This document shows, in pieces, positions 12,304-33,277 of a stretch of DNA of 64,000 nucleotides (position 1 is the first letter of the stretch; the number at the start of each line of letters is the position of its first letter). The notes beneath the pieces are model-generated. The model had not been told where the DNA came from. It did no database searches and worked only from the letters and a program-made list of their open reading frames with translations. Location of the stretch: positions 186,001-250,000 of the forward strand of contig NZ_JANKZL010000003.1 in assembly GCF_027568395.1 (NCBI RefSeq). The letters run 5' to 3'. Position numbers and translations under genes: made by a program. This stretch comes from Aminobacter sp. HY435. Its GTDB lineage: Bacteria; Pseudomonadota; Alphaproteobacteria; Rhizobiales; Rhizobiaceae.

Positions 12304-15300
12304 CTATATCCCAAAAACACTATTCAGCTTTGTCTTAATTGCCGCCGCGTCTATGCCTCGTTCCTCGGTGGTCGTCACCAACACACCGCGTTTCCCGCCA
12401 CCGATCTCGAATGGCAGCACGTCTTCTTTCCGATACCATTCCAGCTTGTTGTGCCATCGGCGAAGGTATGCCGGGGCGTCGAGCATCCCCAGATGCTCCA
12501 CCAGGACCAAACGTCCGGTTTCTGCGTCGTCAACCGTGAAGTCCGGGTATCTAACCGAGCCGTCGCCGCCGACAAATGGCTGCTCGTAGGAGTACGGCAA
12601 CCCCAGACCGTGCAGGAGATCCGCAACGATCACCTCGGATTTCGACCTCACCAGTTCGCCTCGGGCGGTGCGGTGGATCAGGCCCTTCTCCATGAAAACC
12701 GCTGCATGCTCGATCAGATCGGGTTGGCTAAACAGATTGGTCAGGCGTCGTGCTGTGTCAGATTTCTCGGTTTGGGAATATTTAATCAGGTCACGCAGAT
12801 CACCCTGATGGAACAAGACGACGCTGTGACGCTGTCGTGTGAGCGCCGTGTAGAGCAGCTCGCGTGACAGGGGCCGGCAGGGATTGGGAACGACAACGAA
12901 CGTGACACCGAACTCGCTGCCCTGTGACTTGTGTATGGTCAGCGCGTAGGCCAGCTCAAGCCGTTCATCGCCGTCCTGCCCGAAGTCCCGCCCCGAGAAA
13001 CCGAATTTGAATCCTGGCTGGGTCGAAAATTCGACTTCGAGCTTCCACGGCAAACCCTTGTACGTGGCCTTCTTGCCCTTGAACTGGCCAACGACAACGC
13101 CGATTTCGCCATTAGCTAGATAGGCCCGGTTCAACTCCGGATAGACGTCTTTTCGTCGCCCGTTCGCCAGATTGATCACCTTGTCACCATACAAGATGCC
13201 CTGGCTTCCCATCGGCTTTGGTACCTTGCGATAGCGCGGCTGCTCCGGCTCGGCCAAGCTCCGGACGCTGGTTCGGAAAATCCGTTGAATCCGCCGGTTC
13301 AGTCCGTCGATGCCTGTTTCCCCGCCTCGGACAGGCGACAGAATCTGCCAGTCTTCAGCGTGCTTGCCGGCCCCATCGCTTCCCGTCACCGGATCCCTCG
13401 TTGGGTTGAAGTAGATGTGCCCGCCATATGGACGCCCGCCCAAACTGACTTCGAAGGCCTGTTCCAGCGACAGGCCCTGCGCATCCGGCAAAGCCAAGAC
13501 ATGGGACTGAATCTCCCTGAGCAGGGCGGTCGAGAGGTCGCGATCATTTTCCCAGCGGACGACGCGGATGCCCTGGGCGGTCCCGTCCGATAGGCGTTGC
13601 CAGATCTCGTCCGCTCCCGGATCGGGCGAATCACCGCCGAACCAACGAGACAGGAGCAGGTCGTCGCGTCGTATCAAATCACTGCCTGCGCCCTGGGCCT
13701 GCCGGCGAACGATCTTGAGTTCAGCGTATCCCTGGACGTTTCCATCGCCACCCCGCTCGCGAAGCAAGCGGATGATGTCCACGAAGGGCCTGCCTGCGCC
13801 GATCGGAGGTAGCTGGCGAGGATCGCCGACGAGGATCAACCGCTTCACGCTGCCGGGGTCGAGGGCGTCGATGGTCGCGGCGAGCTGATCCTCGGTGAGC
13901 ATCGACGCTTCGTCGATGATCACGGTCCCAAAGCCGTTTTCGCGGTCAGCTTCATTCGTCACCAAATAGGCCCCGGTCGAACCGTCGTAACGCCCGCTTG
14001 CAAGCAGGAATTGGGCAAGGGTGTAAGCCTGAGCAGTGGCGGCGCGCCTCTGCATCTGCACGCGGGCCTTGCCTGTGGGGGCAAGCAGCAGGATGCCGTC
14101 GCGCTTGATCTCATCAAACGAAATGAGAGCTTCAAGAAGACTAGTCTTGCCGGTACCCGCGGGCCCGATCAGAACCGAGACGCGGGACGAAAACAACTCT
14201 TCGAGAGCGAGCGCCTTCTCCTGGCGAGCAAGCTCTTCGACCTCGGCATCCGGCACGCTTTCGAAGCTGGGCAGTTTTTCATCGATTCGCGCGCGCCAAT
14301 CGTGCTGGGCGAGGTGCCTCGCTCCGGACAGGCGCCGAAGCACACGGGTGGAGATGACAGCTTTGGTGGTTTGGTGGCGGAAGAGCTGCCAGGCCGGCGA
14401 CCCGTCGGCCATGGTCACCGCTTCGAGTTCGGGCGGGAAATCAGTCTTGAAAGCGTCGATCCAGTCGCCGCCGATGGCGCAGGGCGGCGATACGTCCTCC
14501 GCGCGCACGCGCTGAATGAGCCAATCCTGGGGCAGCAAGGTATGCCCTTCGCCGCTGGCGCGCTCGAGCGCCTGAACAAGAAACGCCCGGCCCCTGCGCG
14601 GGTCGATAGCTTCGGGACAGTTCGATGGCGCAGGCATGGGAACGGCTGCCGCGATCTGCGCATCGGGGAAGATGCCCCGGTCGATCACTTTCAGGGAGAT
14701 CGAATCGAGTCGCCCGCGGTCGCCTTCGAACAAGACGTAAGGGTTTTGCAGAATGGCCTTGTCGGGAACATCGATGCCTGCCGCGCGCCGCTCCTCAAGG
14801 ACAAACCATCGCCTTGCCTGGTCCGCTGTCAGCTCGAAACGGGCAAGAAGCTTCAGCAAAGCGCGTCTCTCATCCGGCAGCCCCACCCAAAGACGAGCTA
14901 CGGTCGGGCCGACTCCTCGTGCGAGTTCCGGCGGCAAGCGCGCAGGATTCTTGAACACGTCATCGATCAGTGGCCAGGGATCGCGCACATCCGCCGATCC
15001 ATCGACATGCAGTAGCGCCTCGACGGCATGCGCGATCAGGGTTCCGCTTTCGACGCCTAGGGCGGACAGGGCCGAACCCAAGCCAGGAAAGGCTCCGCGA
15101 AACCGCCAGAGCCGGTTCAGCTGCTCGTCCACCCAGCGGCGAGCCGCCTCCCAATCGCCAGGCACAACCTCAGCATATCTTGTCAAAACCGCGGTGGCCG
15201 ACAACAGGGCAGAGATCGCCTGATCGTGACTGACATGCTCCGCACCCATGGAAAAGGCGCTCCAGTGCTCTTCCGGCGCATGCAGAACGTAAGGCGACGG

Positions 15301-32357: not shown

Positions 32358-33277
32358 CCCGTCACCCCTCGTCCTGTGACCGCATCCGAAACGACACGGC
32401 CAGAATCTGCGATCTCTAAAACCCGCTTTGCATCGGCCTCGTTCAACAGGACGATGTGCTGCCTTCTTGGGTCTTCGTTGACAGCGTCATACAAGAGCCC
32501 GAGTCTTTTCATAACGTAAAAGAGCATCGCCATGCGGACGCGAAGAACACATTTGCGTCCTCTCATGCCGTAATCCTTGGCCACGACTTCCTGCTGCGAG
32601 CTCGTAAGCGCTGGATGGGGCGCGATCTCCAATGGATAGTATTCGTGCCAGAAGTGGTCGGCCTCACCTGGCGCACCGGGTTCATCCTCGCAACGTGATT
32701 TCAGGATCCGCGGCAGGAGGAAGTCCTTGAACACCTCCTCTAGATGACAGAAGGCACGGACATGCCACCGAAATCCGTCATAGCCGAAGGCGTGTGGAGT
32801 TATGCGCCGCCATTTGGGATCGGGTCGCTTGGGGTTCATCGATTGATACAGGACCTCGATTGAACGCTGATTTCGGATGGCGTTCAAAACCGCCCTCAGC
32901 ACGACACTGTCCACATCGCGCTTTGGTGTCAGGGCGACATCTGCATCCGGCGCCGTTGATATCCATGAGTCGCGTTGCCAGTCAGCATCTTCAACGGCGG
33001 ACTGCAGTCGGGACAGAAATGCATCTGGATCGGGATTGAGGAACTTTGGTTTGAAGCCGGCAGCCGGGATGTAGCGCTTTGCGCTCTTATCATAGACCAC
33101 ATTTCCTGGCGCACGCTCCTGATAAAGAGTCAGATCCTTCGACGCCTGCGGGACGGACACTCCGAACGTATCGATGATGTCCGAGCGGTTGACACCACCC
33201 TCCCAGAACAGCCGGAATTCTATGAATTCCAGCCGCTGTTCGACACCCCAGCGCAGAGTGTCCACAATTTTAGGCAT
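32354..33277 (-). CDS. WYL-domain transcriptional regulator (BrxR/CapW-like)
   Basis: The protein is about 307 residues. The N-terminal winged helix (LRWGVEQRLEFIEFRLFWEG, NRSDIIDTFGVSVPQASKDL) is the hallmark opening of the BrxR/CapW group. A WYL domain follows in the middle (SIEVLYQSMN, RRITPHAFGYDGFRWHVRAF), then a C-terminal WCX-like part. Such proteins repress defence operons as dimers and respond to nucleic-acid ligands through the WYL pocket. It is the first gene of the leftward operon and sits at the divergent promoter. I prefer ATG 33277; ATG 33292 is possible. Confidence 0.88.
   Translation of the reverse strand: MPKIVDTLRWGVEQRLEFIEFRLFWEGGVNRSDIIDTFGVSVPQASKDLTLYQERAPGNVVYDKSAKRYIPAAGFKPKFLNPDPDAFLSRLQSAVEDADWQRDSWISTAPDADVALTPKRDVDSVVLRAVLNAIRNQRSIEVLYQSMNPKRPDPKWRRITPHAFGYDGFRWHVRAFCHLEEVFKDFLLPRILKSRCEDEPGAPGEADHFWHEYYPLEIAPHPALTSSQQEVVAKDYGMRGRKCVLRVRMAMLFYVMKRLGLLYDAVNEDPRRQHIVLLNEADAKRVLEIADSGRVVSDAVTGRGVTG

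What the first reader, a model, noticed from the sequence alone, without database searches (positions are those of the whole stretch)
12304..33277. Nine-gene restriction-like defence operon with two SNF2 helicases, an Hsp70-like ATPase and a helicase-nuclease
Genes run WYL, SNF2-DUF3883, ASCH, Cys-tailed unknown, DUF1156 methylase, DUF499, RapA-like helicase, Hsp70-like, RecD-nuclease, with 4-bp overlaps or short gaps at most joints. The helicase + DUF1156 methylase + DUF499 ATPase core is known from restriction-like antiviral loci (as I recall, catalogued as a helicase-methylase-ATPase type, related in parts to DISARM and BREX). DISARM's DUF1998 and phospholipase-D genes are absent. The added RapA-like/Hsp70-like/RecD-nuclease trio makes this a possible new or extended type.
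Basis: partly seen in the sequence, partly recalled or inferred. Interest (0 to 1): 0.9.

Follow-up and report, generated by a model that had tools for sequence, protein, structure and literature searches.

The report
Hma defence operon with roaming SNF2-Hsp70 module
A bacterial gene cluster that joins a known restriction-type antiviral system to a little-noticed pair of genes, a DNA motor and an Hsp70-like ATPase, which turns up as a linked pair beside several different antiviral systems in distant microbes.

Summary
The nine genes are real. Genes 1, 2, 5 and 6 are a WYL regulator and a named system: HmaA, HmaB, HmaC (PADLOC 1592, 1222, 955 bits), also published as "Type-1 BR". The last three genes are separable from it. 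In S. psoraleae Hma and the trio lie on different contigs, and 14 of 14 other HmaC-bearing genomes in a 398-genome sample show neither the SNF2 nor the RecD-nuclease gene at the thresholds used. Of the loci examined, only the window and two Mesorhizobium loci join them. The conserved unit is a pair: SNF2 ATPase plus Hsp70-like ATPase. A scan with the Hsp70-like alignment gave 61 loci; 56 have this SNF2 gene alongside on the same strand and 2 more a short piece. The reverse search gave 10 of 11. Protein distances correlate at r=0.95. Active-site residues are intact. Neighbours include BREX, DISARM, Type III and Type IV genes; 4 of 16 profiled loci showed nothing defence-like. PADLOC calls this SNF2 "DrmD", yet one DISARM locus carries it beside a separate DrmD. 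Ten literature searches showed no description. Function is untested.

The parts
32354..33292 (-). WYL-domain regulator, first gene; 89% identical in Mesorhizobium LHD-90 and 67% (residues 7-296) in S. psoraleae, directly before HmaA in both
28866..32357 (-). HmaA: SNF2 helicase with C-terminal NOV_C nuclease-type domain
   Evidence: PADLOC PDLC00659 1592 bits; PF13020 66.6 bits; GAGKT and DEAH motifs
28000..28869 (-). ASCH/PUA-like small protein, 90% identical in Mesorhizobium LHD-90, no match in the S. psoraleae Hma locus
27298..27981 (-). Cys-tailed protein of unknown family, in a variable slot: two relatives have a different gene of about 165 aa here
24495..27305 (-). HmaB: DUF1156 adenine methylase, DPPY at residue 540; likely start 27284; stretch 25448-26491 has no blastn match to the Mesorhizobium copy
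21127..24429 (-). HmaC: Swt1-type HEPN (RNRFSH) plus DUF499 AAA+ ATPase
17964..21122 (-). SNF2b: SNF2 ATPase of PADLOC family PDLC02623, GLGKT and DEAH intact; ORF opens at 21221, likely start 21122
   Evidence: 947 bits; start; conservation; motifs
16171..17967 (-). Hsp70/actin-fold ATPase: about 157-aa variable N-terminal tail plus nucleotide-binding region; 97 residues after the GGG motif
12304..16131 (-). PDC-S68: RecD-type helicase with C-terminal PD-(D/E)xK-like motif (E1166, D1197, E1212, K1229; reading mine); likely start 16080
   Evidence: 1557 bits; start; invariants in 6 of 6; motifs
9624..9773 (.). tRNA-Asp copy, one end of the 151-bp duplication (94.7% identical) flanking the island
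45391..45541 (.). tRNA-Asp copy, other end of the duplication
44118..45332 (+). probable tyrosine-type integrase (judged by eye; no Pfam hit), next to the tRNA-Asp

Best explanation
This is a composite antiviral operon, probably on a tRNA-Asp integrative island. Module 1 is a WYL-headed Hma (Type-1 BR) restriction-modification-like system: HmaB should methylate self DNA; HmaC and HmaA should recognise and cut unmodified incoming DNA; the HEPN domain of HmaC is a possible last-resort RNase. Module 2 is a separable, widely shared two-gene unit: an SNF2 translocase and an Hsp70-type ATPase without room for a substrate-binding domain. I propose that they act together, the SNF2 motor tracking along DNA and the Hsp70-like partner switching or loading it by ATP-driven conformational change, to remodel protein-DNA complexes so that a partner nuclease can act. 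In the window the partner would be Hma plus the RecD-type helicase-nuclease; elsewhere BREX, DISARM, Type III or Type IV systems take that place. Shown here: gene content, intact active-site residues, linkage, co-inheritance and exchange of neighbours. Inferred: physical contact between the two proteins, DNA translocation, the remodelling role and antiviral action of module 2.
For: Hma identity. Separable modules. Pair linkage: 56 of 61 loci found with the Hsp70-like alignment have SNF2b alongside on the same strand (fragments counted), 2 more have a short SNF2b-like piece and 3 none. Reverse: 10 of 11 SNF2b hits at E<=1e-120 have the Hsp70-like gene next door. Co-inheritance: distance correlation 0.95 over 56 sequences sets (window included), 0 of 2000 permutations as high, maximum 0.264. 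Active site: D163, K225, E350 and D373 in 49 of 49 rows, T378 in 48 of 49. Changing neighbours. Tight junctions: HmaC-SNF2b 4 nt with the likely start, SNF2b-Hsp70 4-nt overlap; BrxC-SNF2b-Hsp70-PglX in one direction in L039.
Against: No experiment and no structure (tool switched off). Defence genes cluster in islands anyway, and I ran no control for chance neighbours. The neighbours profiled were picked by me (mostly large same-strand genes): of 16 scanned loci so treated, 11 showed a restriction- or defence-type neighbour, L014 an SbcC-like ATPase, and L013, L016, L046 and L054 nothing defence-like. In L048 and L057 the BREX/DISARM genes lie on the other strand. Correlated distances show joint transfer, not contact. 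Trio plus Hma rests on three related loci. The Hsp70-like profile match is weak: best E 3.5e-5 (DnaK), with an actin-like ATPase at 6.2e-5, ParM at 5.8e-4 and MreB at 1.3e-3. Confidence was lowered from 0.6 to 0.5 after the 11-of-16 recount.
Confidence: 0.5

Rival explanations
1. The nine genes form one integrated system: an extended Hma in which SNF2b, the Hsp70-like protein and the RecD-nuclease are dedicated subunits.
For: Same gene order in the window and L009/L122 (all but the Cys-tailed gene) and, from HmaB onwards, in L010. The last slot holds RecD-nucleases only about 40% identical between the window and Mesorhizobium while HmaC is about 90% identical, so a RecD-nuclease was kept or re-acquired there. 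An HmaC tail remnant (74 aa, 79% identical) lies before a divergent SNF2b in Aminobacter L008.
Against: S. psoraleae has the two modules on separate contigs. 14 of 14 other HmaC genomes lack SNF2b and PDC-S68 at the thresholds used. L011 and L012 have the trio without Hma in the flanks read.
Confidence: 0.15
2. Independent defence systems stacked in one island: Hma, the SNF2-Hsp70 pair and the RecD-nuclease each work alone and share only transcription.
For: PDC-S68 stands without the Hsp70-like gene in 3 of 4 other genomes of the sample, in the 20 kb read (L105 has a 253-aa SNF2-like stretch). The pair mostly stands without Hma or PDC-S68. In L048 the pair lies on the strand opposite to the DISARM genes.
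Against: RecD-nuclease lies beside the pair in 5 of 61 scanned loci plus the window, in two phyla and two gene orders, although only 5 of 398 sampled Pseudomonadota genomes carry it. These six are not independent: L009/L010 and L011/L012 are close pairs.
Confidence: 0.3
3. SNF2b is a genuine DISARM DrmD and the pair is a DISARM relic.
For: PADLOC names its best model DrmD. DISARM genes lie beside it in L048 and by clustering in L058.
Against: L048 has a separate gene scoring 1026 bits on another DrmD model and only 140 on this one. NCBIfam DrmD gives gene 7 450 bits against a cut-off of 610.
Confidence: 0.05

Closest known systems
Hma system (Payne et al. 2021, PMC8565338; passages read) = Type-1 BR system (PMC12839542; section on Type-1 BR systems and passages read)
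   Same: HmaA, HmaB and HmaC match over nearly their whole profiles (HmaC from residue 166 on); HEPN-fused DUF499 and nuclease-fused helicase as the Type-1 BR section describes
   Different: A WYL gene in front, ASCH-like and variable-slot genes between HmaA and HmaB, and three further genes after HmaC. Term counts in the main text of PMC12839542 were 0 for hsp70 and 0 for RecD
DISARM DrmD, PADLOC PDLC02623
   Same: SNF2b matches this model at 947 bits; five relatives, four of them from other phyla or archaea, at 561-931 bits
   Different: No DUF1998 or PLD domain in the nine; one DISARM locus carries SNF2b as well as a separate DrmD
PADLOC candidates PDC-S68 (RecD-nuclease) and PDC-M61B
   Same: Gene 9 is PDC-S68 at 1557 bits. 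22 of 49 Hsp70-like proteins match PDC-M61B weakly (best 5.8e-11)
   Different: PDC-S68 is a single-gene candidate by its name (my reading of the label). The window's own Hsp70-like protein barely matches PDC-M61B (0.0033); what else PDC-M61 holds was not seen
CnuD Hsp70-like proteins of CoCoNuT systems (PMC11090510; passages read)
   Same: Hsp70-type ATPase in a restriction-type operon
   Different: The passages give CnuD NBD/SBD units, degenerate Walker-A-like motifs and McrBC-type partners; here no room for an SBD, an invariant active site and an SNF2 partner
Eukaryotic SNF2 remodellers with actin/Arp subunits (SWI/SNF, INO80; recalled)
   Same: An SNF2 ATPase paired with an actin/Hsp70-fold protein
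   Different: Sequence relation only through shared superfamilies; an HSA-type binding helix was not sought

Membership tests
Hma / Type-1 BR | SNF2 helicase of the HmaA family with fused nuclease domain | tested here: met
   1592 bits; NOV_C 66.6 bits
Hma / Type-1 BR | DUF1156 adenine methylase HmaB | tested here: met
   1222 bits; PF06634; DPPY
Hma / Type-1 BR | DUF499 ATPase HmaC | tested here: met
   955 bits; PF04465 plus HEPN_Swt1
Hma / Type-1 BR | restricts phage | not testable with these tools
   needs plating assays
DUF1156/DUF499/PLD antiphage set of NCBIfam (Gao-type / Type-2 BR by recall) | NCBIfam equivalog cut-offs | tested here: not met
   131 of 1000, 172 of 1200 and 170 of 1100 bits
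DISARM | DrmB (DUF1998) and DrmC (PLD) genes | tested here: not met
   no DUF1998 or PLD domain in Pfam for any of the nine; no DrmB or DrmC model among those listed by PADLOC (which shows only the best 25 of 51 and 48 models for genes 2 and 7)
DISARM | DrmD above NCBIfam cut-off | tested here: not met
   gene 7 450 bits, gene 2 383 bits; cut-off 610
BREX | PglZ and BrxC | tested here: not met
   no PglZ or BrxC domain in Pfam for the nine nor among the PADLOC models listed (same limit)
Hsp70 chaperone | ATPase active-site residues D, K, E, D, T (roles recalled from Hsc70; matched to DnaK motifs by eye) | tested here: met
   invariant in 49 of 49 rows, T378 in 48 of 49
Hsp70 chaperone | C-terminal substrate-binding domain | tested here: not met
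   only 97 residues follow the GGG motif and the alignable region reaches the protein's end; no structure was available
Hsp70 chaperone | Pfam HSP70 cut-off | tested here: not met
   no hit for the window protein at E up to 5; 3 of 49 relatives hit PF00012, best E 0.0032
PDC-S68 | full-length profile match | tested here: met
   1557 bits over residues 26-1272
CoCoNuT CnuD | McrB/McrC-type partner | tested here: not met
   no McrBC domain among the nine; of the neighbours profiled only L008 gave McrBC

The most novel reading that the evidence does not exclude
SNF2b plus the Hsp70-like ATPase is an unrecognised, self-contained defence add-on: a prokaryotic SNF2 motor with an obligate Hsp70/actin-fold partner, comparable in make-up to eukaryotic SNF2-actin/Arp remodellers, that plugs into BREX, DISARM, Hma, Type III and Type IV systems and clears phage proteins or counter-defences from DNA so that the host system's nuclease can act.
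Probability: 0.3. Interest if true: 0.8.

Novelty: new variant of a known kind. Interest (0 to 1): 0.6.

Why it matters
If the pair is a shared accessory, one mechanism may explain an added function in several unrelated restriction systems, and the label 'DrmD' in a defence-gene catalogue covers two different things. It also offers a small, testable prokaryotic case of an SNF2 motor with an Hsp70/actin-fold partner.

Tried and rejected
Structure prediction of the Hsp70-like protein: switched off; replaced by sequence motifs, a PDB profile search and hhalign. hhalign with the genome's own DnaK aligned only 53 columns around the first phosphate motif (88.9%, E 2.4e-6), so Hsp70 against other actin-fold families is not settled. 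Viral contigs: 18 pattern matches, none a relative. Phage records: no match. A protein search of 385 genomes of the class found the Hsp70-like gene in 2, the window's own included. Trio as a fixed part of Hma: rejected. Gene 7 as DISARM DrmD: rejected. ASCH by Pfam: below threshold.

Counting limits. L004 and L025 appear to be the same contig (both 32,856 bases), as do L011 and L102/G623 (82,783) and L047 and L134/G941 (191,356). The script's 61-of-63 adjacency includes five loci (L004-L008) that built the query; the 56-of-61 count leaves them out and adds L067-L069. In it a small ORF was allowed between the two genes (such as L016, L052), and SNF2 fragments (L018, L024, L031, L045) were counted. 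Of the 10 of 11 reverse hits, five (own, G623, G746, G747, G941) were already known from the forward search, and G746 and G747 were the sampling centres. The new ones are G573, G680, G583, G813 and G1087, 5 of 5 with the Hsp70-like gene (in G1087 in two pieces), and G440 (404 bits, the weakest) without it. Of the 14 other HmaC genomes I fetched neighbourhoods for 10; the other four rest on the whole-genome tables alone. Neighbour genes were profiled in 16 of the 61 loci plus plasmids L005 and L008; L012, L037, L041, L044 and L055, and DrmA/DrmB in L058 and DrmMI in L048, rest on clustering with profiled genes. Most cyanobacterial loci had no neighbours profiled. The trees were single FastTree runs.
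Full report
What is there. Nine minus-strand genes run from 33292 to 12304 with short joints. Profiles identify gene 1 as a WYL regulator, gene 2 as HmaA, gene 5 as HmaB, gene 6 as HmaC, gene 7 as an SNF2 ATPase (here SNF2b) whose best PADLOC model is PDLC02623, and gene 9 as PADLOC candidate PDC-S68, a RecD-type helicase. The best solved-structure matches are RapA for gene 7 and RecD proteins for gene 9. Gene 8 has no Pfam hit, but its family profile reaches DnaK at E 3.5e-5 and an actin-like ATPase at 6.2e-5.

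The Hma part is known. Payne et al. 2021 (PMC8565338, passages read) named the helicase-methylase-ATPase set Hma and counted 1,638 instances. A 2026 study (PMC12839542; the Type-1 BR section and passages read) renames it Type-1 BR and describes the same architecture: DUF499 often HEPN-fused, DUF1156 adenine methylase, SNF2 helicase mostly with fused nuclease. These features are met here.

The last three genes are separable from Hma. In 398 Pseudomonadota genomes HmaC is found in 15, the window's included. None of the other 14 has SNF2b (E<=1e-120) or PDC-S68 (E<=1e-80) anywhere in the genome. In Sinorhizobium psoraleae, Hma (WYL 67%, HmaA 82%, HmaB 70%, HmaC 77% identical) lies on one contig without the trio, while the trio lies in the middle of another contig (L012). 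Of the loci examined only Mesorhizobium LHD-90 and M. huakuii share the joined arrangement: L122 gives WYL 89, HmaA 92, ASCH-like 90, HmaB 63, HmaC 92% identity, and L009 gives SNF2b 77, Hsp70-like 62 and RecD-nuclease 38%. For M. huakuii only HmaB onwards was seen. The uneven identities, with no blastn match in 25448-26491 of hmaB and only two short ones inside the RecD gene, suggest piecewise replacement.

The conserved unit is a pair. A scan of the species-genome collection with the six-sequence Hsp70-like alignment returned 61 loci. 56 of 61 have SNF2b next to it on the same strand; two (L033, L035) have a short SNF2b-like piece (104 and 94 bits); three weak hits (L067-L069) have none. Both gene orders occur. 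The reverse search with the SNF2b profile gave 6 of 398, 3 of 198 and 2 of 198 genomes in three phyla; 10 of these 11 have the Hsp70-like gene adjacent, the exception being the weakest hit. Only five of the ten were new and drawn independently (see counting limits). Pairwise distances of the two proteins correlate at 0.95 over 56 sets, with the highest of 2000 permutations at 0.264. This is what joint inheritance of a functional pair predicts, but joint transfer alone would also give it.

Active sites are intact. In 49 aligned Hsp70-like proteins, D163, K225, E350 and D373 are invariant and T378 is present in 48; matched by eye they correspond to DLGTT, the K of AVKRLIG, EPTAA and DLGGGT of the genome's own DnaK (residue roles recalled). 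Only 97 residues follow the GGG motif, too few for a full substrate-binding domain. SNF2b keeps GLGKT, DEAH and QRIGR. The RecD-nuclease keeps its helicase motifs and, in six of six aligned proteins, E1166, D1197, E1212 and K1229, read here as a PD-(D/E)xK-like site.

The pair changes neighbours. By profile or clustering: BREX with BrxC-SNF2b-Hsp70-PglX and PglZ in Desulfocapsaceae L039, and PglZ/BrxL on the other strand in Variovorax L057; DISARM DrmA/DrmB plus a separate DrmD in L048, with DrmA/DrmB clusters in L058; a DrmMI-like methylase in L062; Type III methylase in L049 and by cluster in L055, L041 and L044; McrBC in plasmid L008 and GmrSD in an archaeal MAG L061; a Type IV enzyme in L060 and a Type IIG/DrmMI-like methylase in L038; a DpdF/GajB-like giant protein plus RecD-nuclease in L011 and by cluster in L012. 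On an SNF2b tree, sister genes sit with different systems, for example L041 (Type III) with L058 (DISARM) and L056 (RecD-nuclease) with L060 (Type IV). Against this: of 16 scanned loci with neighbours profiled, 11 gave a restriction- or defence-type neighbour, one (L014) an SbcC-like ATPase, and four (L013, L016, L046, L054) nothing defence-like, one of them a sulfatase. I chose the neighbours, and there was no control for ordinary defence-island clustering.

RecD-nuclease. It lies beside the pair in the window, L009-L012 and, in another order, in Treponema L056. In 3 of 4 other genomes of the sample it stands without the Hsp70-like gene in the 20 kb read. In an unrooted nine-sequence tree the trio copies do not form one group (supports 0.955 and 0.724), which suggests repeated recruitment but is thin.

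Literature. Ten searches of the open-access library showed, in their listings and in the passages I read of five papers, no description of an SNF2-Hsp70 pair; most listed papers were not opened. The nearest is the CoCoNuT paper (PMC11090510, passages), where Hsp70-like CnuD accompanies McrBC homologues and has degenerate Walker-A-like motifs. Kaur et al. 2020 (PMC7159879, passages) describe HSP70 in GTPase-centred conflict systems, and the HEPN survey (PMC3710099, passages) the DUF499, SNF2-DUF3883 operons. Most subscription papers are not in the library, so novelty in print is not proven.

Verdict. Known Hma core, plus a real and widely conserved accessory pair, plus a RecD-nuclease candidate. 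The composite is a variant of known restriction-type systems; the pair is the interesting part, and its function remains inference.

Noticed in passing
window 9624-9773, 10049-10101, 45391-45541: Duplicated tRNA-Asp (151 bp, 94.7% identical) plus a third 53-bp perfect partial copy bracket about 35 kb, with a probable integrase at 44118-45332: an integrative island, perhaps two in tandem.
   Followed up: partly
window 33395-36840: Divergent genes: a protein that looks like a metallo-beta-lactamase fold (by eye, no Pfam hit) and a fusion with E2-family, JAB and, below its cut-off, ThiF domains: a ubiquitin-like conjugation type defence candidate. The first gene is 93% identical next to Hma in Mesorhizobium LHD-90.
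   Followed up: partly
window 39770-42425: AAA domain and peptidase M41 in two adjacent ORFs, like an FtsH split in two.
   Followed up: no
L008 10982-11203: Aminobacter plasmid: a 74-aa tail remnant of HmaC (79% identical) lies between a McrBC gene and a divergent SNF2b (33%), a trace of recombination at the Hma-SNF2b joint.
   Followed up: partly
L009 68-565; L123 about 9690-10190; window 27298-27981: The slot before HmaB holds a shared protein of about 165 aa in Mesorhizobium and Sinorhizobium, but the Cys-tailed gene, which has no match there, in the window.
   Followed up: partly
L103 961-1965: A regulator 63% identical to the window's WYL protein lies about 8 kb from a stand-alone PDC-S68 nuclease.
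   Followed up: no
L037, L038, L057: LmuB-like (Lamassu) proteins near the pair: strong in L057 (445 bits), weak in L038 (51 bits), and by cluster in L037.
   Followed up: no
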